This document shows, one piece after another, positions 17,959 through 35,327 of a stretch of 64,000 nt of DNA. How positions within the stretch are numbered: the first letter of the stretch is position 1; each line of letters begins with the position of its first letter. This stretch comes from Haloglomus halophilum (GTDB taxonomy: Archaea; Halobacteriota; Halobacteria; Halobacteriales; Haloarculaceae). The position numbers and the translations under genes were made by a program. The notes beneath the pieces were generated by a model that was given only the letters and a program-made list of their open reading frames with translations, ran no database searches and was not told the origin of the DNA. The stretch is taken from NCBI RefSeq assembly GCF_024298885.1, contig NZ_CP101166.1, positions 2,170,001 to 2,234,000 of the forward strand. The letters run 5' to 3'.

Positions 17959-18498
17959 GTACTGTGTCCTCCGTTCGTGTGTTGGGCTACGCGGCCCCGA
18001 GGAACTCGTCCCAACCGTGGGGAGTGAACACCCTGAGGGACCTGCCACGTTTCTGTGGCTTTTTATAAACCAGCTGGCGGAAGGCGGTCGCTGGCAGCCG
18101 TGACAGCTCGGCCCGGGCTGCCAACCCGCTGTGACATACGAGAGTGATAAATGGCCGCAGGATAGTGGCAGACGACCGATACTAGTGTGGGTGCTGGTCC
18201 CGGATGGTTCCGGCCTCATCCCCGGGCGCCCGTGTCACGCCCGGGCTGTCGACCACTGCCTGGCGGCTTCGACCGCCCGGCGGCTCCATCACCACACAAC
18301 TGTTGTCGCGGCTCCGGGGCCGGACCATCGAGGTTCCCTGGACGCCTCGTAGCGACAGTGCCGTCCCTGTCAGGACCAGTCCCACTCATCGACGCGCATC
18401 TCCGGCGGCCGGTCCATATCACGCGATTCGTGTCCGAGCGTGGCGCTGCCCCGTCTGTCCGGGACCCTCCCGGGCGGCAGACGGGTGTCGTTCGGCAC
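17959..18498. other. intergenic region with promoter elements for SCP2-A
   Basis: No convincing gene in 540 bases. On the minus strand there is TTTATAAA at 18061-18068 with a GCCAC...GTGGC repeat just downstream of it. Further up lies a diverged copy of the island promoter element (18134-18155). Either could drive the SCP2-like gene A. Confidence 0.4.
18134..18155 (-). promoter_or_regulatory. diverged island promoter element upstream of SCP2-A
   Basis: Read on the minus strand: ATTTATCACTCTCGTATG. It keeps the TATA-like part and the CTCNCGTATG end seen at 21905-21930 but is shorter. It is about 180 bases from the gene start, so assignment is weak. Confidence 0.3.
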
Positions 18499-19098
18499 TC
18501 AGAGCGCCGCGCTTTCGGGGTCGAGGTCGCGCATGTGGTCGGTCGCGACCTGCATGGTGGCATCGAGCTGCTGGGCCTTCTGGATGGGCCCCTCGATCTC
18601 GAACTTCCCCTCCAGGAACGCCTGGACGCCCTGGAAATCCGGGTCGTTCAACATGCTGAACAGCACGTCCGTCGGTCCCCGGAAGACGAGTTCGGCATCG
18701 CCATGCGGCCCGAGGCCACCGGTGATACGGCCCGACTCCGCGTCGGTCTCCATGTGGAACGAGACGGGCGAGTCCTCGCACTCCCAGGTGACGGTGAAGG
18801 AGTCGGTGATCTGCTCGCGGACCTCGGGGACGTGTTCCGTGACGAGCTCCTGCCCCGCCCAGAGCACGGTGAGGAACCGTTCGACCGTCTCCGTCTCGTC
18901 GCTGGCGTAGTCGGCGACGCCGTCCAGCGTACTCATCTTCCGGCTCAGATCCTCGTAGGTGTCGGGGTGTTCGAGGAGCAGTTCACCGACGGCTGCCTCG
19001 TCGTCGAGGCCTGCTATCTCGTCCGGCAGGTCGCGCTTGAACTGGTCGTCGTTGGCCGATACGACCGCATCGAGGTCGTCGAACGCTGGGTCCGTCAT
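18499..19098 (-). CDS. SCP2 sterol-binding domain protein (B)
   Basis: The product is a 199-residue acidic protein. Residues 1-85 are helical (LPDEIAGLDDEAAVGELLLEHPDTYEDLSRKMSTL...FLTVLWAGQELV). Residues about 95-195 form an SCP2 domain (VTWECEDSPVSFHMETDAESGRITGGLGPHGDAELVFRGPTDVLFSMLNDPDFQGVQAFLEGKFEIEGPIQKA). Such domains carry lipids or fatty acyl chains in the cytosol. It pairs with paralogue C (25970-26533), which has the same two-part plan. A copy of the island promoter element lies about 52-74 bases upstream of its ATG. Confidence 0.8.
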   Translation of the reverse strand: MTDPAFDDLDAVVSANDDQFKRDLPDEIAGLDDEAAVGELLLEHPDTYEDLSRKMSTLDGVADYASDETETVERFLTVLWAGQELVTEHVPEVREQITDSFTVTWECEDSPVSFHMETDAESGRITGGLGPHGDAELVFRGPTDVLFSMLNDPDFQGVQAFLEGKFEIEGPIQKAQQLDATMQVATDHMRDLDPESAAL

Positions 19099-19149
19099 GT
19101 CGTGTACCTCTACCGACCCCTGCGTGGGTATCTCAATCAGGGTTCGCTG

Positions 19150-19172
19150 TCATATCTGTGGGTGTTTATCTG
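19150..19172 (-). promoter_or_regulatory. island promoter element, SCP2-B
   Basis: Minus strand reads ATAAACACCCACAGATATG: a TATA-like TAAA, then the C-rich block and a TATG end. It lies 52-74 bases upstream of the ATG at 19098. Confidence 0.55.
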
Positions 19173-19330
19173 CGTTCCCCCCTGGCTGATAAATCGGCCC
19201 CGTGTCGGTCGGGCCTCGCGTGGTGTCTCTCGATGGCGATGCAGCCGGTACCGGGGCGACCTATCCCTGCCTCCTTGCTCCGGCTCACGACGGCATTTTA
19301 TAAACTGGCCTGTTCAGAGCGAGTGTCTGT

Positions 19331-19350
19331 AATAAAGCCCCTCCCATGCT
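19331..19350 (+). promoter_or_regulatory. island promoter element, first HTH-10 gene
   Basis: AATAAAGCCCCTCCCATGCT: TAAA, one base, then CCCCTCCCATG. It is almost identical to the element before the acyl-CoA ligase gene at 33545-33564. Confidence 0.65.
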
Positions 19351-19442
19351 AGAAGTCACCGATAATCGTAGCTCCTCGCAACTCCAGGTACGTGGATTCG
19401 GGGTTCACGCACTAGCCCACCCGATATCACGGGGAGGACAGC

Positions 19443-20165
19443 ATGAGCAGGACACAGCACACGGCCACCGACGCAGGCACAGACACAGACACCGACCGCG
19501 ACGAGCTCCAGCCGATGCGGTTCGTCGAGTTCGTCATCGACCCCGACGAGGGCGGGCTCCATCCGACCGACAAGCGAGTCGCCGAGCACCCCGACCTGGA
19601 GCGGGAACTCGTCCACAACATCAACCTCCTGGCCGATGGGACCGCCAGCGCGCTCTACCAGCTCCAGGGCGACCTCGACGAGGCGCGGGCCATCGTCGAC
19701 GACACCGACGAGGTCTACAGCTACACGGTGAGCCAGACCCGTGACAGCATCCACGCCTACGTCCAGTTCGAGCCGACCGACGACGTCCGAACGCTGCTGG
19801 AGGTCCCCAAGACGTACGGCATCATCCCCGACTTCCCGTTCGAGTTCACCAGCCGCGGCGGCATCAAGCTCAGCGTCGTCGGCGAGTACGACGAGATCCG
19901 GCGGGCCGTCGGCGAGGTGCCGAGTTCCTTCTCGCTGCACCTCACCAGCACGGGTGTCTACCGGCCGACCGCCGAGCGTCTGTTCGCCGAACTGACCGAG
20001 CGGCAGCAGGAGACCCTGAAGGCCGCTGTCGAGGCCGGCTACTACGAGGACTCGCGCGAGGCGACCTACAAGGACATCGCCGCCGCCCTCGACCGCACCG
20101 ACGGCACCGTCGGCGAGCACCTCCGGAAGGTCGAGTCGAAGGTGATGGAGGACCTGGTTCCCTGA
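19443..20165 (+). CDS. HTH-10 (bacterio-opsin activator type) regulator, island copy 1
   Basis: This 240-residue regulator has a conserved opening (MRFVEFVIDPDEGGLHPTDKRVAEHPDLERELVHNINLLADGTASALYQLQGD), an alpha/beta sensor part, and a C-terminal HTH-10 domain (LTERQQETLKAAVEAGYYEDSREATYKDIAAALDRTDGTVGEHLRKVES). The second copy at 27644 shares the EGGLHP and LLxDGTAxxLYQL signatures, so both probably sense related ligands. Each is divergent from an SCP2-like gene, and both carry the shared promoter element. I infer local control of the SCP2/oxidase island, possibly autoregulated. Confidence 0.8.
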   Translation: MSRTQHTATDAGTDTDTDRDELQPMRFVEFVIDPDEGGLHPTDKRVAEHPDLERELVHNINLLADGTASALYQLQGDLDEARAIVDDTDEVYSYTVSQTRDSIHAYVQFEPTDDVRTLLEVPKTYGIIPDFPFEFTSRGGIKLSVVGEYDEIRRAVGEVPSSFSLHLTSTGVYRPTAERLFAELTERQQETLKAAVEAGYYEDSREATYKDIAAALDRTDGTVGEHLRKVESKVMEDLVP

Positions 20166-20260
20166 CGCCAGGTCGCTCGCTGCCGGCGGCTCCGCGTCCA
20201 GTTCCTCCACCGCTTGACATCGCTTCTCCGTGGGTTCGTGCTGCAGAGGCAGGCGGGTCG

Positions 20261-21865
20261 TCACCCGCGGTCGTTCCGGCGCACGACGAGCAGCGCACTC
20301 CCGAGCAGCGCCAGCACCGCGGCCAGCGCCCCGAAGCCCGGCCCGTCGGCGATGGTCGGTGTCCGTAGCTGGCCGCTGTCGGTCCGCTGTGCGGTGCCGC
20401 CACTTCGGGTGGCCGTCGCCGTCCGGCGCGAGGTGGCCGTCCGGGTGGCGGTCGGTGCTGCCGTTGCGGTCCGGGTCGCCGTGGCGGACGAGGTGGGAGC
20501 GGCCGTGGCGGTCGGCGTCGCGGTGGCCGTGCGCGTCGCCGTCGGGGAGGCGGTTGCCGTGGCCGTCGTCGCGCTCCCGGGGGTGGCCGTGGCGGTGGGG
20601 GTCGAACTCCCCTGGTTCGGGGTCGGCGTCGATTCGCCCGACTGCCCCGGCGGGCCGAGTTTCCGTTCGGCCTCGGCGCGGGAGTCACAGTCACAGACGT
20701 AGAAGTATCGGGACTCCAGTGCCATCGATTGCTCCCGGCCACCACCGGCCCCGCGCACCTCGACACTCACGGTGTACCAGCCCGGCTCGCTGGGGTTCTG
20801 AACGCAGTCGACCGTCTCGAATACCACCTGGTCGCCACCGTTGAAGGTGGTCGAGGGGCCGGGCTCCGAGCGGTCCCAGAAATCGGCAGCGAAGACGTCC
20901 GCCGTGGTGTACGGCGACCCCTGGATGTGCTCCGTGTACGACTCGTCGATGGCGAGACTGCCTGCGTCGTTGCGACGGTCGAGGCCGAACTCCGTGACGG
21001 CGGCCGACGAGCAGGCCGAGAAGTCCGACGCGTTCCCGTAGAGGAGGAACCGGTCAACCTCGGCGAAGTCGGTCGCCACCGTCGAACCGGCCGCGGTGGC
21101 GTACGTCGTGTAGCGGGTGGTCGCCCCCGGTCGGTGGGTCCCCAGGTCGACGGTCGTGTTCCCGACCTGTTCGGCGTCGGGCGCCTCGAACTCCGGTGTC
21201 GGCTCCTCGTTCGCCGAGGGCGGCGGCCCCAGCTTCTCGACAGCCTCCTCGCGGGACTCGCAGTCACAGATGGCGAAGTAGTGCGACTGCTGGGCGACGC
21301 CCGCCGGGCTCCCACCCGAACGGGTACCGTTGAGCTTGCCGGTGATCTGGTACCAGCCCGCCTCGTCGGGGTTCTCGATGCAGCCCGCGATGACCGCCAC
21401 CAGCTGGTCGTCGGTCTCGAACGCGACGGCGTCGTCGCCCGAGTCGACCATGTCGATGAATATCTCGTCCTCGTTGAACTCCACCCGCTCGGCGTTGGCG
21501 AGCAGGTTCACGTCGGTCTGGGTCCCGGGGTCGTCGTTACCCTTGTCGAGGCCGAACACGCGCGTGTCGAGCTGGTTGCACCCGTCGAAGTCGAAGTCCT
21601 GCGAGGACGCCCGGATGAACTCCAGCGTCCGCAATCCGTTCGACGGGTGGATGTCCCCGTCGCTCGTGACGAGGACCTCCGTCCCCGCCGCGTCCGTCCC
21701 CGGCTGGCGGTCGCTCGCCGACGGGAGGTTGATGGTGAAGTTGCCGATCATGTCGTGGTCGGCCGACGCGGTTCCGACGAAGTCCGTCACGACGACCAGT
21801 CCGGCGAACGCCGTCAGGACCACGGCGAGCGACAGCAACGCGCCAAGCGCTCGGCTTCGGAGCAT
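20261..21865 (-). CDS. secreted PGF-CTERM surface protein with two CDC-SR repeats
   Basis: The 534-residue protein has a Sec signal (LGALLSLAVVLTAFAGLVVV...ASA, cut near 35) and two related domains of about 170-190 residues. Each has an early Cys, a F(G)LDxxND segment, a CxxNPxExGWY segment, and the ending CDCxSRxEAxxKLGPP. A Thr/Ala/Pro-rich stretch (about 415-500) and PGFGALAAVLALLGSALLVVRR then close the protein. That tail is a PGF-CTERM signal processed by archaeosortase with lipid attachment. The paired cysteines suggest disulfides outside the cell. A one-domain homologue is at 48431. The function is not known. It is divergent from the LivK-like gene. Confidence 0.8.
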   Translation of the reverse strand: MLRSRALGALLSLAVVLTAFAGLVVVTDFVGTASADHDMIGNFTINLPSASDRQPGTDAAGTEVLVTSDGDIHPSNGLRTLEFIRASSQDFDFDGCNQLDTRVFGLDKGNDDPGTQTDVNLLANAERVEFNEDEIFIDMVDSGDDAVAFETDDQLVAVIAGCIENPDEAGWYQITGKLNGTRSGGSPAGVAQQSHYFAICDCESREEAVEKLGPPPSANEEPTPEFEAPDAEQVGNTTVDLGTHRPGATTRYTTYATAAGSTVATDFAEVDRFLLYGNASDFSACSSAAVTEFGLDRRNDAGSLAIDESYTEHIQGSPYTTADVFAADFWDRSEPGPSTTFNGGDQVVFETVDCVQNPSEPGWYTVSVEVRGAGGGREQSMALESRYFYVCDCDSRAEAERKLGPPGQSGESTPTPNQGSSTPTATATPGSATTATATASPTATRTATATPTATAAPTSSATATRTATAAPTATRTATSRRTATATRSGGTAQRTDSGQLRTPTIADGPGFGALAAVLALLGSALLVVRRNDRG

Positions 21866-21904
21866 GCCCGGGGCTATCCGGAGACACCGGCAACTCGGTG
21901 TCTC

Positions 21905-21930
21905 CTCATACGAGTGGGAGTTTATATCGG
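21905..21930 (-). promoter_or_regulatory. island promoter element, PGF-CTERM protein
   Basis: Minus strand ATAAACTCCCACTCGTATG. The 50-base stretch to 21957 resembles 19151-19199 closely, including the distal TGATAAATCGGCC box at nearly the same distance. Confidence 0.55.
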
Positions 21931-22100
21931 ATTCTCCGATGGCCTGATAAATCGGCCGCGTTCTGCCGCCCCGGACGTGTCCGATACGCCATGCCCAAAA
22001 TCACATGTGGGCTAAATAAATTGAGAATGTGGGGAATAGTTGGTTTGTTATGGGAATTCGGTCTGTGTCGGGCGGATTTCCGAATCCATCTCCCGAGGGG

Positions 22101-22122
22101 GTTATGAATGTCCTAGCATGGG
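22101..22122 (+). promoter_or_regulatory. island promoter element, LivK-like operon
   Basis: TATGAATGTCCTAGCATGGG matches the oxidase-operon element (TATGAATGCCCTCTCATG) in layout, about 75-95 bases before the ATG at 22195. Confidence 0.5.
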
Positions 22123-22194
22123 AGAGCATAGACCTACCGAGGTGGCTCCGCCTGTTCCGCCAGAGCGGCCGCGACGCGGCCGATCCACAGAACC

Positions 22195-23676
22195 ATGGAC
22201 GACACGCACACGACACGCACACGGCACTCGGTGGCCCGGCGCCGGTTCATCCAGGCCGCGGGAACCGGCGTTGTCGCATCGTTCGCTGGCTGCTCGGGGG
22301 ACTCAGACGGTGGCGGCGGGGTCACGACATCGCCCGGGACCTCGAACGGGACGAAGCCACCGCGGAACAAGTTCGAGGGCGAGACGATCAAGATCGGCGT
22401 CCTCGGTCCGCTACCCCAGGAGAACCCGCTCGGGAAGTCGATGGCCAACTCCGCGAAGCTCGCCGCGAAGTACATCCGCGACCAGGAGCAGGAGGCCGAT
22501 TCGGACTTCCTCGAACAGTACGTGGAAGGCAGCATCGACCGCGCGGCGCTCGCGAAGAACTACCACTACAAGTACGAGCACATGCTCGGCGCCGACATCG
22601 AGGTCGTCGTCGGGAACACCGAGGCCACGCCCGCGACCGCGAAGCAGGAGTATCTCCGGCTGACGTCCGAGGAGAACGTCGACCTCACGGTCGGGGTGTT
22701 CTTCAGCTCGGTCATCAACGGGCTGATGGACCTCATCGCCCAGCAGGGGGTGCCACACTTCACGACGGGCGCGGCCGCGCCCCAGCCCGCCCGCCTCGTC
22801 TCGCAGGAGTACGAGAAGTACAAGTACCACTTCCGGGTGGGGCCGTTCAACTCCGTCGCGCTGGCGAAGGCCCAGCTCGAGTTCATCGACCTGTATGCCG
22901 ACCAGCTCGGCTGGAACAAGGTGGGGGTGCTCGTCGAGGACATCGCGGACCTGAAGCCGTTCCACGACTACCTGAAGGGCCGCATCGGGAAGCACATCGA
23001 CACGCCCGTCATCAAGGTCACCTCCAGCGGCCAGACCAACTGGACGCCGATCTACGACGACCTCGAGAGTGCGGGCGTGGACGTGGCGCTCGTCGGGCTG
23101 GCGCTGACGGGCCAGTCCGCCGCGAAGCAGTGGGCCGACCAGCAGCGCCCCTTCGAGTTCGGCGGTATCCACGTCTTCAGCCAGTTCCCCGGCTTCTGGG
23201 AGGACCTCAGCGGGAAGGCCCGCTACATCTTCACGATGAACTCGGTGACGCCGCAGACGGAGAACACGCAGTTCACCCAGCCGCTGATGAAGGCGTACAA
23301 CGCTAACTTCGACAGCTACCCCGTCTACTCCGGTCCCATCACGTTCGACGCGGTCCGGCTGTTCGCCGCCGCTATCCGCGAGACGGGGACCCTGAACCCG
23401 GACCGGCTCGTCAACTTCGTCGAGAGCCGCCGGTTCGAGGGCGTCAGCACCATCGTCCCGTTCGCGGAGTTCACCGGCCCCGACGCGAAGTACGCCCACG
23501 AGCCGAAGTTCACCTGCATGTCGGGAGACACCTGTGACAGCCCCATCGGCGTCCCGCTGTGGCAGCAGTGGCAGAAGGGCAAGCAAGGCGAGGGCGTCGA
23601 GGGCGCTGGCGTGATGGAGTGTTTCGCCCCGGGACCGGTCAAGACTGCCGACTACCAGAAGCCACACTGGATCTGA
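22195..23676 (+). CDS. LivK-type ABC substrate-binding lipoprotein
   Basis: This 493-residue protein has a Tat lipoprotein signal (RRRFIQAAGTGVVASFAGC) followed by a Gly/Thr spacer. The type I periplasmic-binding fold comes next (ETIKIGVLGPLPQENPLGKSMANSAKLAAKYI, then VVVGNTEATPATAKQEYLRLTSEENVDLTVG, then GWNKVGVLVEDIADLKPF). It belongs to the branched-chain amino acid/amide-binding group, but that group also takes aromatic acids, urea and other organics. Cys pairs near the C-terminus (CMSGDTCDSP) may form a disulfide. It leads an operon with the two permeases and carries the island promoter element. Confidence 0.85.
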   Translation: MDDTHTTRTRHSVARRRFIQAAGTGVVASFAGCSGDSDGGGGVTTSPGTSNGTKPPRNKFEGETIKIGVLGPLPQENPLGKSMANSAKLAAKYIRDQEQEADSDFLEQYVEGSIDRAALAKNYHYKYEHMLGADIEVVVGNTEATPATAKQEYLRLTSEENVDLTVGVFFSSVINGLMDLIAQQGVPHFTTGAAAPQPARLVSQEYEKYKYHFRVGPFNSVALAKAQLEFIDLYADQLGWNKVGVLVEDIADLKPFHDYLKGRIGKHIDTPVIKVTSSGQTNWTPIYDDLESAGVDVALVGLALTGQSAAKQWADQQRPFEFGGIHVFSQFPGFWEDLSGKARYIFTMNSVTPQTENTQFTQPLMKAYNANFDSYPVYSGPITFDAVRLFAAAIRETGTLNPDRLVNFVESRRFEGVSTIVPFAEFTGPDAKYAHEPKFTCMSGDTCDSPIGVPLWQQWQKGKQGEGVEGAGVMECFAPGPVKTADYQKPHWI

Positions 23677-23678
23677 CG

Positions 23679-24539
23679 ATGGTCGATGTCCTCAACATCG
23701 CGCTGAACGCCGCGGCCATCAGCGCGCTGTACGCGCTGGTGGCGCTGGGCTTCACGCTCATCTTCGGCGTCGGCGGCGTCCTCAACCTCGCACACGGCGC
23801 GCTCATCACCGTGGGCGCGTTCGCGGCCCAGCAGGTCTTCCGGGTGCTGGGGCTCCCGCTCCCGCTGGCCGTGCTCGGCGGTATCCTCGCCGCGGGCACG
23901 GTGAGTGGACTCCTCTATCTGGGAGTCGTGCGCTTCATCCAGGACCAGACCGTGAAGGTCATCCTCTCGACGGTCATCATCGGTTTCCTCGTGCGCCACG
24001 CGGTCCGCATCGTCTTCGGCACCGGGACCCTCACGCTGCCACAGCTGTTCCCGGGGTCGGCCGGTATCCTGGGCGAGTCCGTCCAGAACAACATGGTGTT
24101 CGTGTTCTGTTCGTCGTGGGTGCTCATCCTCGCACTGTTCGCGCTGGTGAACTACACCACGCTCGGGAAGGCCATCCTCGCGACGAGCATGAGCGACCGC
24201 GGCGCCGCGCTCGTCGGCATCGACGCGACCCGCATCAACACGTACACCTGGTTGCTCGCCGGCATGTTCGCCGGTTTCGCCGGCGTGTTGCTCACCTCCT
24301 TCCGGAGCGGCGGCTGGCGGATGGGACTCGACCCGATGGTCCTCTCCTTCGCCATCGTCGTGCTCGGGGGGCTGGGCTCCATCCGTGGAAGCGTCCTCGG
24401 CGCGTACATCATCGGCACCATCGAGACGGTCACCGTCTCCGTGGTCGACACCCGCCTGACCGGTGTCGTCCCGCTGCTCATCCTCATCGCCGTGCTCGTC
24501 GTCAGACCACAGGGTCTCTTCGGGAGGGCGGAAGCATGA
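23679..24539 (+). CDS. LivH-type ABC permease
   Basis: This 286-residue permease has eight or more membrane segments and the LivH pattern: ALYALVALGFTLIFGVGGVLNLAHGALITVGAF at the start, and AGFAGVLLTSF...VLSFAIVVLGGLGSIRGSVLGAYIIG later. It starts 2 bases after the substrate-binding protein gene and overlaps the next permease by the usual ATGA. It should form the membrane channel with the LivM-like partner. Substrate follows that of the binding protein and is unknown. Confidence 0.88.
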   Translation: MVDVLNIALNAAAISALYALVALGFTLIFGVGGVLNLAHGALITVGAFAAQQVFRVLGLPLPLAVLGGILAAGTVSGLLYLGVVRFIQDQTVKVILSTVIIGFLVRHAVRIVFGTGTLTLPQLFPGSAGILGESVQNNMVFVFCSSWVLILALFALVNYTTLGKAILATSMSDRGAALVGIDATRINTYTWLLAGMFAGFAGVLLTSFRSGGWRMGLDPMVLSFAIVVLGGLGSIRGSVLGAYIIGTIETVTVSVVDTRLTGVVPLLILIAVLVVRPQGLFGRAEA

Positions 24540-25786
24540 GCACTGGCGACTCCAGCGCCGACACGACGATGGACGCGTCCGGTGACGCGCCGCTCGATTT
24601 CGGCGCCGTCGAGAAGCGACCGAGCCTCGCCGAACTGCGCGACGCCGTAGCGCCGACACCGAAGCGCATCGTCGGACTCGTCGGACTGGCCGGCCTCGCC
24701 GCGGTCCCACTGGCAGCCTCGCTGACGGACCTCATCGAACTCATCGGGCTGCTGTACCTGATGCTGTTCGCGATGAGCTGGGACGTGGTCTCGGGGTACA
24801 CCGGCCAGCTCAGTCTCGGCCACGCGTTCTTCTTCGGGCTCGGCGGCTACACGACGACGGTGGCGAACGTCCAGCACGGCATCTCCCCGGCGCTGTCGAT
24901 CCCGCTGGGCGTCCTCGTGGCGGTGGTCGGCGGATTGCTCATCGGCGTGCCAGCGTTGCGCATCCGCGGGCCGTACCTCGCCCTGGTCACGCTCATCGCG
25001 CCCATCATCCTGCTCCAGCTGTTCGTCCTCTTCAGTTCGCGCCTACCCGTGCTCGCGCCCGCGGGTCTGAAGGGGCAGAACGGCTTCGCCACCTCGCCGG
25101 CACCGGTCGTCGGCTCCGGGTCGGAGGCACTCATCCAGATCGAGGGCTTCCGCGCCGCACTCATGGGTCAGTACTACCTCTCGTTCGTACTGCTCGTCGT
25201 CGTCCTCGCGGTCCTGCTGGCGGTCACCCGCTCGTCTGCGGGCTCGGTGTTCACCGCCATCCGCGAGGACGAACGCGCGGTGTCGGCGGCGGGGCTGAAC
25301 CCGGCGAAGTTCAAGATCTTCGCGTTCACCCTCAGCGCTGCGGTCGGCGGACTGGCCGGCGCCATGTTCGTCCACACGACCGCCGGTGGCGCCCAGCCCT
25401 CGCAACTGCTGGAGGTGCTCGTCAGTGTGCGTGTCATCATCCTCGTCGTCCTCGGCGGGATGGGCACTATCGTCGGCGGCATCGTCGGGGGCGTCTTCTT
25501 CATGCTCACGACGCTCGTGCTGGGGGCGCTCGACAGTGCGGTCGGGACGGTCCCCGTGCTGGACACCGGCATCGCCAACCTCCGGCCGGTTCCGCTGCTG
25601 TCGATCGCGCTCGTGACGGTCATCTTCGCGCCCAGGGGTATCCTCGGCTGGTTCGACCGGCTCTGGGCCGAACACGTGAGCGGCGAGGCCGTCCCGGACC
25701 GCGAGACGGCGCCGCTCGTGCTCGTCGTCCGGCGCTACCGGCAGCAGATTCGTGATCTCGGCGTCTTCGGTGACGAGGAGCGGTAA
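24536..25786 (+). CDS. LivM-type ABC permease
   Basis: The 416-residue permease has the LivM signature (YTGQLSLGHAFFFGLGGYTTTVANVQHG; later AIREDERAVSAAGLNPAKFKIFAFTLSAAVGGLAGAMFVHTTAGGAQPS). An N-terminal hydrophilic extension of about 55 residues (MSTGDSSADTTMDASGDAP) precedes the first helix. It ends the operon. No LivG or LivF ATPase gene follows or occurs anywhere in the window, so the transporter must borrow ATPases from another locus or they have been lost. Confidence 0.88.
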   Translation: MSTGDSSADTTMDASGDAPLDFGAVEKRPSLAELRDAVAPTPKRIVGLVGLAGLAAVPLAASLTDLIELIGLLYLMLFAMSWDVVSGYTGQLSLGHAFFFGLGGYTTTVANVQHGISPALSIPLGVLVAVVGGLLIGVPALRIRGPYLALVTLIAPIILLQLFVLFSSRLPVLAPAGLKGQNGFATSPAPVVGSGSEALIQIEGFRAALMGQYYLSFVLLVVVLAVLLAVTRSSAGSVFTAIREDERAVSAAGLNPAKFKIFAFTLSAAVGGLAGAMFVHTTAGGAQPSQLLEVLVSVRVIILVVLGGMGTIVGGIVGGVFFMLTTLVLGALDSAVGTVPVLDTGIANLRPVPLLSIALVTVIFAPRGILGWFDRLWAEHVSGEAVPDRETAPLVLVVRRYRQQIRDLGVFGDEER

Positions 25787-25969: not shown

Positions 25970-26533
25970 TCAGCCGGGGATACTGCTCGAGAGGTCGTCG
26001 ATGAGGGGGGCCAGCTGGGTGCCGTGCTGGATGGAGCCGTCCATCTGGTACTGGCCGCTCATGAAGCCCGGGATGGGCTCGACGCGACCGGACAGCAGCC
26101 CCACGAGCACGTTCGCGGGGCCGGTGATCTCCAGCGTGGCGTCGTCTAGGTGGCCGGCGCCGCCGGTTACGACCTGCTCGTCGGCGTCGACGCGCAGGTG
26201 GCCGGTCATCGGGCAGTCGTTGGCCTCGAAGTTGACCGTGATGTTCTGCGCGATTCTCTGCTGGACCGACTCGTTCTGCTCGACGACGACTTCGGCGCCG
26301 CTCCACAGTAGCTGCTGGAACTGGTCGGCGGTCTCCGGGTTCGACTCGACGAACGCCGCGATGTCCATCGACTCCATCCGCTCGACGATGCGACCGAACA
26401 CGACGGGGTGCTCCCGCAGGAGTTCGCCCGTCTGCCCCTCGGCCTCCTCGAGCAGCCCGGGCAGTTCCTCCTCCAGTTCCGCCTGTGGCTTGTCGAGCGA
26501 TGCCTCGATTCGTTCGATGAGGTCCTCTGTCAT
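25970..26533 (-). CDS. SCP2 sterol-binding domain protein (C)
   Basis: This 187-residue acidic protein has the same plan as B: an N-terminal helical half (LPGLLEEAEGQTGELLREHPVVFGRIVERMESMDIAAFVESNPETADQFQQLLWSGAEVV) and an SCP2 half (VDADEQVVTGGAGHLDDATLEITGPANVLVGLLSGRVEPIPGFMSGQYQMDGSIQHGTQLAPL). It is likely a cytosolic lipid or acyl-chain carrier. The ATG at 26533 was chosen because residues upstream are unlike the paralogue and would begin before the predicted transcript start. It lies 237 bases from gene D, same strand. Confidence 0.78.
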   Translation of the reverse strand: MTEDLIERIEASLDKPQAELEEELPGLLEEAEGQTGELLREHPVVFGRIVERMESMDIAAFVESNPETADQFQQLLWSGAEVVVEQNESVQQRIAQNITVNFEANDCPMTGHLRVDADEQVVTGGAGHLDDATLEITGPANVLVGLLSGRVEPIPGFMSGQYQMDGSIQHGTQLAPLIDDLSSSIPG

Positions 26534-26769: not shown

Positions 26770-27498
26770 CTAGAGGATGAACCGCGTCTCCTGGTCGGCG
26801 GCGAGCTCCGTCAGCGCGACCGCGCCGTCGGTGTACTGGAGGATCTTCTGCATGTCGCCGTCCACGTCGAACTCGCCGGCCATCAGCATGCTGACGATGT
26901 CGCCGTCACCGTTGACGAGCTCCCGCCAGCTCCCGTACGCGCCGATGATGCGGAAGCCGTGGTCGCGCTCGTCCGGCGACTGGACGACGTCCACCTCCCG
27001 GCAGCCGCCGTCGTACACGTCGAGATACGCGTAGACGGTGTCGCTGTCGACGAGGCTCTCCTCGAGCTGGGTCAGTAGCTCCCGGAGGACCTCCGGAATC
27101 TCCTCGCGGAGCTCCGGCCAGATGCGGTCGGGCCCCTCGGCGAGGTTCGTCTCGTGGAGTTCGGCCAGCGCCTGCTCGTGGATGTCGCCGTCTCGGGCGC
27201 GGACGTCGGCCTGGACCTCGTCGGGGGCGGCGTCGATGATGGCCTCGACCTCCTCGGCGCTGCGCGACCGGAGTTCCGCGTCCAGCGCGGCGATAATCTC
27301 CTCGGGGAGGTCGGCGATGGTGCGCTCGGCCAGCGGGATGTCCTGGATGTGGAAGATGAACGCTCCCTCCCAGTCGACGCCCCAGCCGGCGCCCTTCTCG
27401 GCGTACTCGTCGGAGGCCTCGATGGCATCACGGTAGCGCTCCAGCCACGGTTCCGTCGGGAAGTACTGCTCGATGTCGCGGACCTGTTGGGTGCTCAT
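26770..27498 (-). CDS. SCP2-like protein, FPTEQWL subtype (D)
   Basis: The product is 242 residues. It carries the subtype opening (YFPTEPWLERYRDAIEASDEYAEKGAGWGVDWEGAFIFHIQDIPLAERTIADLPEE), a charged central helix region (about 70-150), and the SCP2-like end (YLDVYDGGCREVDVVQSPDERDHGFRIIGAYGSWRELVNGDGDIVSMLMAGEFDVDGDMQKIL). Homologues in this window are A and E. The acidic middle is longer than in A. It is divergent from the second HTH-10 gene, with TATA boxes only about 10 bases apart, so the two promoters must influence each other. Confidence 0.78.
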   Translation of the reverse strand: MSTQQVRDIEQYFPTEPWLERYRDAIEASDEYAEKGAGWGVDWEGAFIFHIQDIPLAERTIADLPEEIIAALDAELRSRSAEEVEAIIDAAPDEVQADVRARDGDIHEQALAELHETNLAEGPDRIWPELREEIPEVLRELLTQLEESLVDSDTVYAYLDVYDGGCREVDVVQSPDERDHGFRIIGAYGSWRELVNGDGDIVSMLMAGEFDVDGDMQKILQYTDGAVALTELAADQETRFIL

Positions 27499-27587
27499 GG
27501 TTGGTCTGGCGGCCGGTGCCCGGCTCTCTCGGCCGGTGGCCTGCTGCAGTGGCGGTCGCGGGGAGCCCCGGTGGGTCTTGGTCCACC

Positions 27588-27607
27588 GATATGAGGGGGT
27601 TTATGAG
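27588..27607 (-). promoter_or_regulatory. island promoter element, SCP2-D
   Basis: Minus strand CATAAACCCCCTCATATC. It lies back to back with the plus-strand element at 27610-27630, so both cannot easily be occupied at once. Confidence 0.6.
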
Positions 27608-27609
27608 AG

Positions 27610-27630
27610 GTATTAACACTCTCCCTTGTG
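27610..27630 (+). promoter_or_regulatory. island promoter element, second HTH-10 gene
   Basis: TTAACACTCTCCCTTGTG, a looser match. It predicts a transcript start near 27638, a few bases before the ATG at 27644. Confidence 0.45.
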
Positions 27631-27643
27631 AGGGACGAGGCCC

Positions 27644-28342
27644 ATGCCCCACGACGCCCCAGCACCGGGACGAGGAGACACGCATCCGATGCGCTACGCC
27701 AGGGGTGTCCTGCTTCCAGACGAGGGCGGGCTCCATCCGGTCGACGAGCTGTTCGCGAACGACCCCGACGTGACTCGCGAACTTCTGCGGAGCATCAGCC
27801 TCCTCGAGGACGGGACAGCCGCGGTCCTCTACCAGCTCGTGGGCGATATCGACCGCATCCGCGAGGTCGGCGAGACCAGCCCGGAGGTGCTGGACTACCA
27901 GCTCTCGGCCACCGGCGCGACCGTCACGGTGTACGCGCACATCGAGGCATCCCCGCTACTGACCGAGCTGATGGGCGTGCTCCGGCAGCACGAACTCGTG
28001 CTGGACATGCCGCTGACGTTCACCGAGGACGGGGGGCTGCGCGGCGCCGTCATCGGGAGCGACGAGACCATCCGTAACGCGGCTGCGGACCTCCCGGACA
28101 GCGTCGCCATCCATCTCGAGGGTATCGGCGAGTACGAACCGGAGGACCGGCGCGTGTTCGCCTCGCTCACCGAGCGCCAGCAGGAGACACTCCTGACGGC
28201 GCTGGACCTGGGCTACTACGAGGTCCCCCGGGAGGCCACCCACCAGGACATCGCCGACGAACTCGGGCGGACCGCCGCCACGGTCGGCGAGCACCTCCGC
28301 CGCATCGAGCGGACGGTCTTCCGGGAGATCGCGCCGCGGTGA
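27644..28342 (+). CDS. HTH-10 (bacterio-opsin activator type) regulator, island copy 2
   Basis: This 232-residue regulator resembles the copy at 19443: MRYARGVLLPDEGGLHPVDELFANDPDVTRELLRSISLLEDGTAAVLYQLVGD at the front and the HTH-10 end (LTERQQETLLTALDLGYYEVPREATHQDIADELGRTAATVGEHLRRIER). The ATG at 27644 gives a nearly leaderless mRNA; the ATG at 27689 (MRYARG) is an alternative that matches the paralogue better. It sits between SCP2-like genes D and E, and E starts 63 bases after its stop. Confidence 0.8.
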   Translation: MPHDAPAPGRGDTHPMRYARGVLLPDEGGLHPVDELFANDPDVTRELLRSISLLEDGTAAVLYQLVGDIDRIREVGETSPEVLDYQLSATGATVTVYAHIEASPLLTELMGVLRQHELVLDMPLTFTEDGGLRGAVIGSDETIRNAAADLPDSVAIHLEGIGEYEPEDRRVFASLTERQQETLLTALDLGYYEVPREATHQDIADELGRTAATVGEHLRRIERTVFREIAPR

Positions 28343-28362
28343 CTGATATACGCCCTCATATC
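28343..28362 (+). promoter_or_regulatory. island promoter element, SCP2-E
   Basis: GATATACGCCCTCATATC, immediately after the HTH-10 stop. It predicts a start near 28372, which excludes the ATG at 28364 and supports the one at 28406. Confidence 0.6.
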
Positions 28363-28405
28363 CGTGGAGGTGGGGTTAGGCGGCTCTCGGTCCTCGGACC
28401 GTCCC

Positions 28406-29095
28406 ATGACCGAGTGGTTCCCCTCGGAGCAGTGGCTCGAGCGCTACCGCGAGCAACTCAACGCGAACGAGCGATACGCCGCGGACAGCGAGGGCTGGGG
28501 CGTCGACTTCGACGGCGACTTCCTGTTCGTCGTGCAGAACCTGCCGCTCGAGGAGACGACCGTGGGCGACCTCCCGGACGACCTCGTGGACCCGCTGGTC
28601 GGCGAGCTCGAGACGCTCGACGACGACGAGCTGGCTGCCCTCCGTGCGAGTGCGACCGACGACTTCGCCGCGCGGCTCGACGGCGAGGGGCACGACACGT
28701 TCGTCGGGACGATGCTCGCGACGCCGCTCGACGACGTGCCCGCGGAGGTGTGGCCCGGCCTCCGCGCCTATTTCCCCGACGAACTGGACGACCTGCTCGG
28801 GCAACTGGAGGCGTACGTCGACGACGGCACTGCCGTGGTCCACGTCGCGCTCGAGGACGGCGAGTGCCAGGCCATCGACCTCCTGGCCGACCCCGACGGC
28901 GTCGAGACGGGCTTCGAGCTACGCGGGCGCTACCCGGTCTGGAAGGAGCTCATCGAGGGCGCCGACGTCATCGAGTCGGTGATGTCCCGGGACATGCAGT
29001 TCGACGGGAGCGTCACGACCGTGCTCGAGTACGACGACGCGGCCGCGGAGATGGGCGACACCGCCGGCGAGACGCCCGCCCGATACCTGTTCTGA
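28406..29095 (+). CDS. SCP2-like protein, FPSEQWL subtype (E)
   Basis: The 229-residue, very acidic protein begins MTEWFPSEQWLERYREQLNANERYAADSEGWGVDFDGDFLFVVQNLPLEETTVGDLPDD. It ends with the SCP2-like half (VVHVALEDGECQAIDLLADPDGVETGFELRGRYPVWKELIEGADVIESVMSRDMQFDGSVTTV). It is closest to D and A. SCP2 folds deliver lipids or acyl-CoA to enzymes. Here the gene directly precedes the oxidase operon (98 bases), which makes a substrate-presenting role for the oxidase an attractive but unproven idea. Confidence 0.78.
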   Translation: MTEWFPSEQWLERYREQLNANERYAADSEGWGVDFDGDFLFVVQNLPLEETTVGDLPDDLVDPLVGELETLDDDELAALRASATDDFAARLDGEGHDTFVGTMLATPLDDVPAEVWPGLRAYFPDELDDLLGQLEAYVDDGTAVVHVALEDGECQAIDLLADPDGVETGFELRGRYPVWKELIEGADVIESVMSRDMQFDGSVTTVLEYDDAAAEMGDTAGETPARYLF

Positions 29096-29192: not shown

Positions 29193-30248
29193 ATGGCACG
29201 GCAAGCGACTCCGACCTACCGGGCGGAGCGGATCGACACCACGAGCAAGTGGTACGACCTGTTCCAGAAGGGGGTCGAACTCGGGACGTGGAACGTCGAG
29301 AAGCTGTTCGACGAGGTCGGCTTCGAGCAGGACCGCGAGACGTGGGCCGAACTCGACGACGACGAGCGCAAGCAGATCCGCTTCCTCCTCTCGGGCTTCC
29401 TCGACGGGGAGTTCGCGGTCGGTGAGGACGCCAGCCATCACCTCCAGCGCATCATGGACGCGGACTGCTTCGACGACAACGAGGAGATGGCGATGTACAT
29501 GACGATGTTCACGCTGACCGAACACAAGCACACCCAGTTCGTGGACACGTACATGCACGAGGTGATGGGCGACCAGGACATGTACGCCGAGCTGAACCCG
29601 AACCGCGGTGGCGCCCGCGTCCCCGTCGTGCAGGCGACCGGACTCAACGAGATCTTCGACCGGCAGGGGATGCTGACGGCGCGGGCGGCCCACTCGGAGG
29701 ACCCCGTCGACATCGCCCGGGCACTCACGGTCTACCACATGACCGTCGAGGGGCTGCTCGCCCGCGCGGGCTTCTACGCCATCAACAAGCTCTCCGTGAA
29801 CGCCGACCTGCCGCTGCTGAACCACGGCTTCAAGTTCATCAGCACGGACGAGGGCCGGCACATCACCCACGGCGTGGAGGCGTTGACGCAGCTCATCGAG
29901 AAGGAGGAGGCCGGCAAGCCCGAGTTCCAGGGTGTCCAGCAGGGCATCCTCGACGAGCTGTACGAGACGGTCCCCGCGGTCGCGGACTTCGGCTACATGT
30001 TCACCGACGCCGTCGACGACCCGCTGGAGATCGGCTACGACGACCTCATCCTCCGGGTCGGCAACCTCATCGACGGCCTCTACAACGAGACGCTGGGGCT
30101 CGACATCGCCTACCGCGATGTCGTCGGTCGGGTACAGGACCGCTACCTGGAGTGTCTGGAGATGGACCTCGACGCCGAGATCGAGCAGTACCAGGAGGTC
30201 TACCAGAAGAAACGCGGTGTCGCCGCTGATGGTGGGGTGGGACGATGA
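29193..30248 (+). CDS. R2-like ligand-binding oxidase (ferritin-like di-metal protein)
   Basis: This 351-residue protein resembles the ribonucleotide reductase R2 superfamily. Probable metal ligands are E73 (in DGEFAV), E110 and H113 (TEHKH), E186 (TVEG), and E220 and H223 (DEGRH). V76, three residues after the first Glu, and Y181, five before the fourth ligand, match the Val-Tyr ether-crosslink pair known in R2lox proteins. R2lox enzymes hold a Mn/Fe centre and a bound long-chain fatty acid and carry out two-electron oxidations; true substrates are unknown. No RNR large subunit is adjacent. It heads an operon with a small acidic protein and a ferredoxin. Databases may label it RNR beta. Confidence 0.78.
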   Translation: MARQATPTYRAERIDTTSKWYDLFQKGVELGTWNVEKLFDEVGFEQDRETWAELDDDERKQIRFLLSGFLDGEFAVGEDASHHLQRIMDADCFDDNEEMAMYMTMFTLTEHKHTQFVDTYMHEVMGDQDMYAELNPNRGGARVPVVQATGLNEIFDRQGMLTARAAHSEDPVDIARALTVYHMTVEGLLARAGFYAINKLSVNADLPLLNHGFKFISTDEGRHITHGVEALTQLIEKEEAGKPEFQGVQQGILDELYETVPAVADFGYMFTDAVDDPLEIGYDDLILRVGNLIDGLYNETLGLDIAYRDVVGRVQDRYLECLEMDLDAEIEQYQEVYQKKRGVAADGGVGR

Positions 30249-30532
30249 CGGGCCCGCTCGAGGACCTGAAGCTGGACCGCGGCGCGGAGTACACGGCCTC
30301 CGAGGCGGAGGTCGAGGCGGCCATCGAGGACGCGGCCGAGGAACTCGACCAGAGCGTCGAGGAGGTCAGCGAGAACGTCGCGTACATCATGGATTCGACG
30401 TTCGAGGAGGAGGGTGTCTCCACCTCGTTCAACGAGAGCGTCAGCGGCGCCAGCCTCGACCACGACGAGACCGGCACCGGTGACCCGCGTCTGGAAGCCC
30501 TGGAGCTGTACAAACTGCGCCAGCGCATCTGA
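30245..30532 (+). CDS. small acidic protein between oxidase and ferredoxin
   Basis: The 95-residue, strongly acidic, mostly helical product (EAEVEAAIEDAAEELDQSVEEVSENVAYIMDSTFEEEGVS) ends in LEALELYKLRQRI. Its ATG overlaps the oxidase stop (ATGA) and the ferredoxin gene begins 1 base after its stop, so it is made with both. I recognise no family. Its place in the operon suggests an accessory subunit or a link between oxidase and ferredoxin. Confidence 0.75.
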   Translation: MTGPLEDLKLDRGAEYTASEAEVEAAIEDAAEELDQSVEEVSENVAYIMDSTFEEEGVSTSFNESVSGASLDHDETGTGDPRLEALELYKLRQRI

Positions 30533-30533
30533 G

Positions 30534-30872
30534 ATGGCCGCGAACGACGCTGCGCGCGACGGCGACCACGAGGTCACCTTCCGGGTCGACGGCGAGCCCG
30601 TGACGACCGAGGTCGATGCCGACGAGTACCTGCTCGACGCGGCCGAACGCGCCGGACTCGACCTGCCGTACTCCTGCCGGAACGGGATGTGCACGTCCTG
30701 TGTCGGCGAACTGGAGGCGGGGACGGTCGACGACAGCGAGGCGACCGCGCTCGACCCCGGCCAGGTCGATGACGGCTACGTCCTGCTGTGCTGTTCGCGC
30801 CCGACTGCGGACTGCGATATCGTGGCCGGCGATGGCGTGCAGGAGGAGATGCTGGGGCTGGACGTGTTCTGA
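30534..30872 (+). CDS. [2Fe-2S] ferredoxin
   Basis: This 112-residue plant-type ferredoxin shows the cluster motif CRNGMCTSC (CX4CX2C) followed by a fourth Cys about 30 residues later (VLLCCSRP). The N-terminal strand pattern EVTFRVDGEPVTTEVDADEYLLDAAERAGLDLPYS fits the fold. It carries single electrons in the cytosol. Position as third gene of the oxidase operon suggests it is the electron donor of the oxidase. A start further upstream is in frame but would overlap the small acidic protein, so the ATG at 30534 was chosen. Confidence 0.88.
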   Translation: MAANDAARDGDHEVTFRVDGEPVTTEVDADEYLLDAAERAGLDLPYSCRNGMCTSCVGELEAGTVDDSEATALDPGQVDDGYVLLCCSRPTADCDIVAGDGVQEEMLGLDVF

Positions 30873-31939: not shown

Positions 31940-32028
31940 GATTCAGTGCGGCGGGATACGTCGGCCGCCCGTCTAATGTTTTCCACCGGTGACCGATCGG
32001 TCACCGACGGCTGCTCGGTCACCGGCGG

Positions 32029-33417: not shown

Positions 33418-33544
33418 ACCGCCACCGAACACCCGAACGGAAAAGTAACTCCTGATACCCCCCTTATCCAGCAGCGTCGCCGAACCCGCTCTCCGGCTGG
33501 GGGTTCGACGAGGCCGAGTGACGGGACCCCGTCGACCTCGCCGG

Positions 33545-33564
33545 GGTAAAACCCCTCCCATGAG
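33545..33564 (+). promoter_or_regulatory. island promoter element, acyl-CoA ligase
   Basis: GTAAAACCCCTCCCATGAG, 41-60 bases before the chosen ATG at 33605. Confidence 0.65.
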
Positions 33565-33604
33565 AGAGGTGACCGATTAGCGAGAGGCCGTCGATGTGTC
33601 CTCC

Positions 33605-35284
33605 ATGACCGACCCCGAGCGCCCGTGGCTTCGGGAGTACGAGACGTACGGCATCGACGAGACGCTCGAGCCGTACCCTGATCACCCGGTCCACGGCTTT
33701 CTCGAGACCGCCGCTACGGAGTATCCCGAGCAGGGCCTCGTCCAGCACGGGGCAAGGTTCACCTACGAGTCCGTTCTCGCCGATGTCGAGCGGCTGGCGA
33801 CCGCACTCCACGAGCGCGGCGTCGGGCAGGGCGACCGCGTCGCCACCGTCCTCCCCACGTCGGTCCAGTTCGTCGTGGTGACGAACGCCGTCTCCCGGCT
33901 CGGTGCGGTCCACATCCCGAACGACTTCCTCGAATCCACCGCGGACCTCGTCGGCCGGCTGGAGCGTGGCGACCCGGACGTCCTCGTCGGGGACGCCGCC
34001 CACCGCGACCTGCTGACCTCGCTACGGGACGAACTCGGGCTGGAGTCGGTCGTCCTGACCGACATCGAGGACTACTCCGCCGACCCGCCGAGCCACGAGC
34101 CCGAGCCGGGTGTCGAGTGGCTTCCCCACGTCGTCGACGACGCTCCGCGTGACCCGCCTGTGGTGGATATCGCTCCCGACGACACCCACACGCTGCTGTT
34201 CACCGGCGGCACCACGGGACGGCCGAAAGGCTGCCTGCTGACCCATCGGAACCTGGTGGCGAACGCGCTCCAGGCGACGGCCGCACAGTCGCGGCTCCCA
34301 CAGCTGCTGCGCGGGAGCGAGGCTGCGGTGTTCGCACTGCCGATGTACCACGCCTACGGCTACTCCACGGTGAACAGCCTCGTCGAACTCGGGCTGGACC
34401 TGCTGCTGGTGCCCGACGCCCGCGACAGCGGGACGATGCGTGACCTCGTCGCCGAGTACGAGCCGATGCTCATGCTCGGCGTGCCGACCCAGTACATGGA
34501 GCTCGTGGACGAAGAACTGGATCACGATGTCATCGGTCTTTCGGGATCGGCGCCGCTGGCCAGCGAGACGCGAGACGAGTTCAGCGAGCGCGCTGCCGGC
34601 ATCTCGCAGGGGTACGGCCTCTCCGAGATGTCGCCAGTCACGCATTTCAACGTCGCTGGCATCCAGGCTTCGCTCCTGGGTCGGTCGGTCGACGACGGCG
34701 GCTTCGACCAGCCGACCATCGGCGTTCCCGTTCCGGACACCGAGGTCGAACTCCGTGACCCCGACAGCGGCGAGCCGGTCCCCGTCTCCGAGGCCGTCGC
34801 CGACGAGCGGGAGGCCGAGCTGCTGGTGAACGGCCCCCAGCGGATGGCGGGCTACCTCGATGACCCGGACCCGTTCGACGCGGACGGGTTCGTGGCGACC
34901 GGCGACGTGGTCAAGGTCGACGAACGAGGCCGGTTCTACGTCGTCGACCGCGTGAAGAACATGATCAACGTCTCCGGCCTGAAGGTGTACACCGAGGAGG
35001 TCGACGACGTGTTGTTCGGGATGGATGGGGTCCGACGCCCGGCAACGGTCGGCGTTCCCGACCCCGAGCGCCCGGGCAGCGAGCGCGTGAAGGTCTACGT
35101 CGAGCCCGAGCCGGGCACGACGGTCACGCCCGAGGCCGTGCGGGAGTACCTGGAGGGGCGTGTCCCCCGACAGGCCATCCCCGATGAGGTCGAACTGCTC
35201 GAGGAGTTGCCCCTCACCGATATCGGGAAGACGGACAAGGTGGCGCTACGGGAGCGTCACGAGCACGGGGATGTCGGGGACTGA
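33605..35284 (+). CDS. AMP-dependent acyl-CoA ligase
   Basis: This 559-residue ANL-family enzyme has the A3 loop TLLFTGGTTGRPKG (around 197-210), the A5 motif YGLSEMSPVTHFN, the A7/A8 hinge ATGDVVKVDERGRFYVVDRVKNMINVSGLKVY, and the A10 catalytic Lys (LPLTDIGKTDKVAL). It should activate a carboxylic acid with ATP to an acyl-adenylate and then to an acyl-CoA. Fatty or aromatic acids are both possible; the substrate pocket cannot be read reliably. An alternative start is the ATG at 33596. It carries the island promoter element, linking it to the SCP2/oxidase genes. Confidence 0.88.
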   Translation: MTDPERPWLREYETYGIDETLEPYPDHPVHGFLETAATEYPEQGLVQHGARFTYESVLADVERLATALHERGVGQGDRVATVLPTSVQFVVVTNAVSRLGAVHIPNDFLESTADLVGRLERGDPDVLVGDAAHRDLLTSLRDELGLESVVLTDIEDYSADPPSHEPEPGVEWLPHVVDDAPRDPPVVDIAPDDTHTLLFTGGTTGRPKGCLLTHRNLVANALQATAAQSRLPQLLRGSEAAVFALPMYHAYGYSTVNSLVELGLDLLLVPDARDSGTMRDLVAEYEPMLMLGVPTQYMELVDEELDHDVIGLSGSAPLASETRDEFSERAAGISQGYGLSEMSPVTHFNVAGIQASLLGRSVDDGGFDQPTIGVPVPDTEVELRDPDSGEPVPVSEAVADEREAELLVNGPQRMAGYLDDPDPFDADGFVATGDVVKVDERGRFYVVDRVKNMINVSGLKVYTEEVDDVLFGMDGVRRPATVGVPDPERPGSERVKVYVEPEPGTTVTPEAVREYLEGRVPRQAIPDEVELLEELPLTDIGKTDKVALRERHEHGDVGD

Positions 35285-35306
35285 GCCCGGACTTCCGGCC
35301 CTCGAA

Positions 35307-35327
35307 CATTAAACACCCGCTCATGTG
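35307..35327 (+). promoter_or_regulatory. island promoter element, enoyl-CoA hydratase
   Basis: ATTAAACACCCGCTCATGTG. It predicts a start near 35337, supporting the ATG at 35371 rather than 35323. Confidence 0.6.

What the first reader, a model, noticed from the sequence alone, without database searches (positions are those of the whole stretch)
17959..35327. One promoter element shared by eleven or twelve transcription units defines a 19-kb lipid/oxidase regulon
Seen directly: in gene sense, a TATA-like TRAA plus one base is followed at fixed distance by about NCCCTCNCATR. Clear copies: 19331 AATAAAGCCCCTCCCATGCT, 33545 GTAAAACCCCTCCCATGAG, 35307 ATTAAACACCCGCTCATGTG, 29131 CATATGAATGCCCTCTCATG, 22101 TATGAATGTCCTAGCATGGG, 28343 GATATACGCCCTCATATC, 27588(-) CATAAACCCCCTCATATC, 26604(-) ATATAAATCCCCTCACACGG. 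Looser copies: 19150(-), 21905(-), 27610, 18134(-). They head SCP2-like genes, both HTH-10 regulators, the surface protein, the LivKHM operon, the oxidase operon, the CoA ligase and the enoyl-CoA hydratase. UspA and CNNM genes inside the same stretch lack it. A conserved site between TATA box and start point is a classical place for a repressor or special initiation factor. This ties otherwise unrelated genes into one programme.
Basis: seen in the sequence. Interest (0 to 1): 0.93.

Follow-up and report, generated by a model that had tools for sequence, protein, structure and literature searches.

The report
Shared promoter switch for lipid genes
In a salt-loving archaeon, eleven promoters of one gene cluster, predicted to break down fats or alkanes, carry the same short two-part DNA signal, which also precedes the matching genes in related species and is likely the docking site of a repressor encoded in the cluster.

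Summary
The element is a rigid core promoter: TATAAA, 3 bases, a 14-bp dyad (CCnCnnATnnGnGG), then preferred A at 27-28, T at 32 and A at 34. A matrix trained only on other genomes gives, as its 11 best hits in the whole 64-kb window, exactly 11 cluster promoters. Genome-wide the element is near background outside the cluster. It precedes orthologous genes across the order, including 17 of 20 held-out SCP2b loci. In 25 of 25 oxidase-bearing genomes examined, an HTH-10 gene lies within 5 kb of element-bearing family genes. Inferred mechanism: an HTH-10 dimer on the dyad, between TATA box and start site, blocks RNA polymerase and leaves when a lipid- or alkane-derived ligand arrives. Activation through the same site is the main rival. 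The oxidase keeps the eight key R2lox residues; a published R2lox is an alkane hydroxylase, and an R2lox gene is reported hexadecane-induced in a haloarchaeon. Binding, ligand, direction and transcript starts are untested.

The parts
18044..18067 (-). element before the 17245-17958(-) gene
   Evidence: 17.6 bits, relatives-only matrix; same element before the G048 orthologue
19147..19170 (-). element before SCP2a (18499-19098)
   Evidence: 17.0 bits
19331..19354 (+). element before HTH-10 gene 1 (19443-20165)
   Evidence: 16.2 bits
21903..21926 (-). element before the PGF-CTERM surface protein (20261-21865)
   Evidence: 19.2 bits
22103..22126 (+). element before LivK-LivH-LivM (22195-25786)
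   Evidence: 15.4 bits
26600..26623 (-). element before SCP2b (25970-26533)
   Evidence: 18.6 bits; SCP2b loci of other genomes carry it too
27582..27605 (-). element before SCP2c (26770-27498)
   Evidence: 25.9 bits, the best hit of the window
27611..27634 (+). weak element before HTH-10 gene 2 (27644-28342)
   Evidence: 7.3 bits, 10.9 with the 36-bp matrix
28345..28368 (+). element before SCP2d-like gene (28406-29095)
   Evidence: 24.0 bits
29133..29156 (+). element before the R2lox-type oxidase operon (29193-30872)
   Evidence: 19.6 bits
33545..33568 (+). element before the acyl-CoA ligase (33605-35284)
   Evidence: 13.0 bits, 11.2 with the 36-bp matrix
35308..35331 (+). element before the enoyl-CoA hydratase (35371-36177)
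   Evidence: 19.9 bits
17245..17958 (-). SCP2c-like protein, no Pfam match at 0.001
   Evidence: 31% identical to SCP2c; no family
18499..19098 (-). SCP2a
   Evidence: Pfam SCP2, E 1.8e-07
19443..20165 (+). HTH-10 regulator 1
   Evidence: HVO_0513_N and HTH_10
20261..21865 (-). surface protein with PGF-CTERM
   Evidence: Pfam PGF-CTERM, E 1.8e-04
22195..25786 (+). LivK, LivH, LivM uptake genes
   Evidence: Peripla_BP_6 and two BPD_transp_2
25970..26533 (-). SCP2b
   Evidence: Pfam SCP2, E 4.1e-06
26770..27498 (-). SCP2c
   Evidence: Pfam SCP2, E 1e-04
27644..28342 (+). HTH-10 regulator 2
   Evidence: HVO_0513_N and HTH_10; model
28406..29095 (+). SCP2d, SCP2c-like
   Evidence: 34% identical to SCP2c; no Pfam match at 0.001
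29193..30872 (+). R2lox-type oxidase, 95-aa protein, 2Fe-2S ferredoxin
   Evidence: Ribonuc_red_sm and Fer2; R2lox alignment
33605..35284 (+). acyl-CoA ligase (AMP-binding)
   Evidence: E 3e-67
35371..36177 (+). enoyl-CoA hydratase
   Evidence: ECH_1, E 1.4e-52

Best explanation
Eleven promoters of one haloarchaeal gene cluster, predicted to oxidise lipids or alkanes, share a rigid TATA-plus-dyad core promoter that also precedes the same gene families in related species, and the dyad is likely the operator of an HTH-10 repressor encoded in the cluster. Shown: the element, its spacing, its near-confinement to the cluster in this genome, its conservation, and the linkage of HTH-10 genes to it. 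Inferred: an HTH-10 dimer binds CCnCnnATnnGnGG between TATA box and start site and keeps RNA polymerase from loading; when a lipid- or alkane-derived ligand binds its N-terminal ACT-like domains it would leave, and the oxidase, SCP2 proteins, acyl-CoA ligase, hydratase and uptake genes would be switched on together.
For: Relatives-only matrix: 11 best window hits are 11 cluster promoters. Genome-wide near-confinement. Held-out SCP2b promoters: 17 of 20 at 17 bits or more, null 0 of 307 at 16. Fixed TATA-dyad gap of 3 in 103 of 127 relatives' and 8 of 11 window promoters. No conserved position upstream of TATA in 99 sites. HTH-10 gene near element-bearing family genes in 24 of 25 oxidase-bearing genomes, the 25th by coordinates. 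Linked HTH-10 proteins cluster in the tree: 5 changes against 12.4 in shuffles. Model with a sigma4/LuxR-like HTH and a possible ACT-like N-terminal part. [quoted passage not shown]
Against: No binding, expression or transcript-start data. The TATA part is weak (CTTCAA) at the oxidase and ligase promoters of Natrialba and Natrinema, which fits activation better. Upstream regions of HTH-10 genes in relatives rarely carry the element: 1 of 12 at 11 bits. Half-sites do not match within single sites beyond shuffles. Held-out failures: G229, G215, G074. Three of 32 oxidase upstream regions fall under 11 bits. Two of 18 paralogue loci have one hit of 16 bits or more. The linkage does not exclude an unlinked regulator.
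Confidence: 0.55

Rival explanations
1. The HTH-10 protein is an activator or promoter-selectivity factor: bound just downstream of the TATA box it would help TBP and TFB load on promoters with weak TATA boxes and no A-rich TFB recognition element.
For: CTTCAA at oxidase and ligase promoters in Natrialba and Natrinema; nothing conserved before TATA. A at -4 to -2 is 9-26% in regulon promoters against 33-38% in 42 generic ones. Bat activates bop, whose TATA box deviates from consensus (PMC1447603 and PMC3184054, passages). NarO activates nar and represses dms (PMC10062603, passages); that NarO and Bat belong to the HTH-10 family is recalled.
Against: The site lies where a bound dimer would be in the way of polymerase; the bop UAS lies 5' of the promoter. 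Other promoters of the set have good TATAAA boxes. The generic sample is small.
Confidence: 0.27
2. The dyad is the operator of another regulator encoded elsewhere, and the HTH-10 genes are regulon members or neighbours only.
For: No binding data. HTH-10 genes are not beside the oxidase in Halocatena-type genomes. Two unlinked paralogues fall inside the main linked clade.
Against: Where oxidase and HTH-10 are apart, the HTH-10 gene goes with other element-bearing family genes; linkage in 25 of 25 genomes examined.
Confidence: 0.13
3. The element is only the ordinary haloarchaeal core promoter, or chance.
For: TATA and the start-site region are general features; the 36-bp matrix also finds ordinary promoters.
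Against: 42 generic TATA promoters show none of the dyad, A28 or A34 preferences. Window shuffles 1.8 against 10. Null 1 of 307 at 13 bits.
Confidence: 0.02
4. The inverted repeat acts as an RNA hairpin in the 5' leader.
For: The consensus is an inverted repeat.
Against: No compensatory change: covariation score 0.051 against 0.104 in shuffles. The dyad is locked to the TATA box and lies upstream of the expected start.
Confidence: 0.02

Closest known systems
TrmB/TrmBL1-type archaeal regulons (PMC10817205, passages read)
   Same: Palindromic site; position relative to TATA decides direction; downstream sites inhibit polymerase recruitment
   Different: Other protein family (HTH-10 here, inferred), other motif, lipid/alkane genes instead of sugar metabolism, one rigid TATA-dyad spacing
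Bat and the bop UAS of Halobacterium (PMC1447603 and PMC3184054, passages read)
   Same: Haloarchaeal regulator with a C-terminal HTH and a TATA box off consensus. The recalled UAS consensus also has CC and GG ten bases apart (from memory, no call)
   Different: The UAS lies 5' of the promoter; here the dyad lies downstream of TATA. Bat has GAF and PAS domains
R2lox alkane cluster of Geobacillus kaustophilus (PMC10867098, abstract and passages read)
   Same: R2lox oxidase with acyl-CoA ligase and enoyl-CoA hydratase; in relatives also acyl-CoA dehydrogenase and, in Natrialba, aldehyde and alcohol dehydrogenases
   Different: The haloarchaeal cluster has several SCP2 proteins, a ferredoxin, a 95-aa partner and this promoter element

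Membership tests
Archaeal repressor operator between TATA box and start site | Dyad-symmetric site at fixed distance downstream of the TATA box | tested here: met
   Gap 3 best in 103 of 127 relatives' and 8 of 11 window promoters; consensus symmetric, 58.8% standard pairs against 29-45% when slid
Archaeal repressor operator between TATA box and start site | Start site downstream of the dyad | not testable with these tools
   No 5'-end data; element-to-start-codon distance is 59-62 in 48 of 99 relatives' sites, which leaves room for a short leader
Archaeal repressor operator between TATA box and start site | Loss of regulator raises expression | not testable with these tools
   Needs a deletion strain
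HTH-10 regulators (HVO_0513 type) | HVO_0513_N plus HTH_10 domains | tested here: met
   Both cluster proteins, E 1e-15 or better for each domain
HTH-10 regulators (HVO_0513 type) | Binds the dyad | not testable with these tools
   Linkage only
ACT-domain sensor proteins | ACT-like sensor fold in the N-terminal part | tested here: inconclusive
R2lox oxidases | Six metal ligands and the Val/Tyr pair (E69, V72, E102, H105, Y162, E167, E202, H205; list from PMC10867098) | tested here: met
   All eight aligned to identical residues, read by eye in the alignment with 4hr0
R2lox oxidases | Oxidises alkanes or fatty acids | not testable with these tools
   Needs enzyme assay
Bat-type upstream activating sequence | Site upstream of the TATA box | tested here: not met
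   No position at -19 to -1 exceeds 0.13 bits in 99 sites; dyad is downstream

The most novel reading that the evidence does not exclude
The HTH-10 protein is a dedicated promoter-recognition factor: a rigid composite promoter (TATA, 3 bases, dyad, AA, initiator) without a TFB recognition element is read jointly by TBP/TFB and a sigma-region-4-like HTH-10 dimer on the dyad. The regulator would work inside the core promoter and switch an alkane/lipid programme on rather than block it.
Probability: 0.2. Interest if true: 0.8.

Novelty: new variant of a known kind. Interest (0 to 1): 0.63.

Why it matters
It gives an exact, testable candidate operator for a large haloarchaeal regulator family (16 homologues at E 1e-25 in this genome); none of the 15 papers listed in one search holds the name HVO_0513. 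It ties an R2lox oxidase, SCP2 proteins of unknown role and acyl-CoA enzymes into one programme, which makes the function of each easier to test. Its fixed geometry with the TATA box offers a clean system for asking how archaeal regulators act inside the core promoter.

Tried and rejected
The bare palindrome CTCNYATGNGAG with 2 mismatches is not enriched in the window (82 against 95 expected); the version tied to TATA is. The whole-genome profile search (R1) scored only 150 of about 400-1000 candidates per genome, so it is not a census; its strongest hits fall in the clusters. The 36-bp matrix was meant to sharpen the test but also picks up ordinary promoters (9 hits of 16 bits or more in 400 kb), so the 24-bp matrix discriminates better. 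RNA hairpin: rejected. The window's spelling of the element searched in 146 family genomes gave scattered hits at about the level of the reversed control; relatives spell the half-sites differently. Own-genome site C1:2269898 (1 mismatch) lies in the overlap of two coding regions and was dropped. Gene starts come from a home-made caller and some are wrong; it missed the HTH-10 genes in L119 and L130, which one search recovered. Linked and unlinked labels for the tree were set by hand; L181_478 lies in a cluster stretch but was labelled unlinked.

I found no paper that describes this element or regulon in searches (listings only, apart from the passages cited). Kumar et al. 2020 on haloarchaeal alkane degradation and Baliga and DasSarma 1999 are not held, so a description there cannot be excluded.
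Full report
What was checked. The window lies in a 4.45-Mb haloarchaeal genome (C1:2170001-2234000). Genome-wide, TRAANNCCCTCNCATGNGAG with at most 2 mismatches has 6 sites: 5 in this cluster, one in a coding overlap. At exactly 3 mismatches there are 33 more, 4 of them in the cluster; the total of 39 is close to the reversed control of 34. Outside the cluster the element is therefore near background.

What the element is. Loci around orthologues of the oxidase (12 named records; 20 further stretches) carry the same arrangement with other letters in the dyad. The consensus is TATAAA, three free bases, then the 14-bp dyad CCnCnnATnnGnGG. Across 99 relatives' sites A28 stands in 95% (84% after down-weighting near-copies), and T32 and A34 are preferred. 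In the window A28 is kept in 9 of 11 strong sites and A34 in 8 of 11. No position from -19 to -1 before the TATA box exceeds 0.13 bits. When TATA and dyad parts are scored apart and gaps from -2 to 11 compete, gap 3 wins in 103 of 127 relatives' promoters and in 8 of 11 window promoters (both parts come from gap-3 sites, which favours 3 somewhat). 42 generic TATA promoters from the same sequences show none of the dyad, A28 or A34 preferences, and a weak A preference before TATA that the regulon promoters lack.

Independent test on the window. A 24-bp matrix trained only on other genomes (122 sites, about 48 after down-weighting; seeds chosen by eye after I had seen the window motif) was run over both strands of the window. 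Its 11 best hits are exactly 11 cluster promoters, 25.9 down to 13.0 bits; the next two hits score 12.8. In 400 kb of flanking own-genome DNA 12 hits reach 13 bits and 1 reaches 16; the cluster has 11 and 9. UspA scores -1.1 and CNNM -1.7 (3.6 from an earlier start). The second HTH-10 gene has only a weak copy, 7.3. The site of the 17245 gene is 18067, not 18134.

Held-out test. SCP2b orthologues were found in 43 of 392 genomes. Of the 30 loci returned, 20 lie outside the training stretches (own genome included); 17 of these 20 score 17.0 bits or more, and G229 (8.4), G215 (0.4) and G074 (10.6) fail. Of the 7 from genomes without the oxidase, 5 carry it. Null: of 307 upstream regions of the own genome 1 reaches 13 bits and none 16. 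In the training loci, upstream regions at 11 bits or more are: oxidase 29 of 32, SCP2d 21 of 21, SCP2c 15 of 16, SCP2b 15 of 16, X219 13 of 13, acyl-CoA ligase 9 of 12, HTH-10 genes 1 of 12, other genes 25 of 399. The dyad pattern with at most one mismatch in 40 whole genomes gives 79 matches against 27 in the reversed control in 24 oxidase-bearing genomes, and 17 against 11 in 16 others; in the own genome 6 against 0, five of them in the cluster. Isolated family genes keep it: the 98%-identical orthologue of the 17245 gene in G048 and an SCP2-like gene in G051. Some matches are unexplained: C1:1346594 before a hemL-like gene, also found in G048, and a G047 site before another gene.

How it most likely works (inferred). 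A dimer on a dyad between TATA box and start site would block polymerase loading. That is the rule stated for TrmB-type regulators: sites downstream of TATA inhibit polymerase recruitment, upstream ones activate (PMC10817205, passages). Release by a lipid-derived ligand would switch on the whole set. Activation is kept as the main rival because the TATA part is weak (CTTCAA) at oxidase and ligase promoters of Natrialba and Natrinema and the A preference before TATA is missing. The half-sites are symmetric on average (58.8% standard pairs against 29-45% when slid) but match within single sites slightly less than in shuffles, which speaks against an RNA hairpin.

What the programme does (inferred). 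The oxidase keeps the six metal ligands and the Val/Tyr pair of R2lox (alignment, residue list). In Geobacillus an R2lox is reported as an alkane hydroxylase inside a beta-oxidation cluster, and the same paper cites up-regulation of an R2lox gene by hexadecane in the haloarchaeon Halorientalis hydrocarbonoclasticus (PMC10867098, abstract and passages; the original is not held). Relatives add acyl-CoA dehydrogenase, an SDR, and in Natrialba aldehyde and alcohol dehydrogenases. A lipid or alkane oxidation regulon is therefore likely; no substrate is shown.

Verdict. The shared promoter is real, conserved and more precise than first described. Regulator, ligand, direction and start sites are inferred or untested.

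Noticed in passing
30245-30532: 95-aa protein between oxidase and ferredoxin, 71-84% identical in 11 of the 12 named relatives' loci (not called in the 12th, L119), more conserved there than the ferredoxin (56-61%); no confident Pfam match. It may be an oxidase partner.
   Followed up: partly
L115:1515-2717, and stretches of L128, L129: A DUF6230 gene beside a DUF6114 gene in a Natrinema, with a strong copy of the element upstream of the pair (33.1 bits); they look like further members of the programme there (Pfam).
   Followed up: partly
about 19184-19200 and 21941-21957: The same CTGATAAATCGGCC (plus strand) stands upstream of the elements at 19170(-) and 21926(-): a possible second TATA box or another shared site.
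   Followed up: no
own genome C1:1346594 (L227) and G048 C1:1373016 (L226): A dyad-pattern match 210-270 bases before a gene that looks like hemL, present in both genomes of the genus.
   Followed up: partly
own genome C1:2071011(-), L038: Element-like site (23.6 bits with the 36-mer, 15.0 with the 24-mer) whose positions 34-36 are an ATG: a possible further member with a leaderless transcript.
   Followed up: partly
L113:7394-8053 and orthologues (X219): About 220-aa protein without Pfam match, hydrophobic by eye, with one of the best elements in every Natrialba and Natrinema locus looked at; not found among the window's cluster genes.
   Followed up: partly
14763-15872 and 15887-17068: Two adjacent genes with nearly identical N-termini, just outside the cluster; apparently a tandem duplicate.
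   Followed up: no
G047 C1:3425667 (L229): A perfect dyad-pattern match 61 bases before a gene with a Tat-type leader (by eye) in a same-genus genome where the oxidase was not found.
   Followed up: partly
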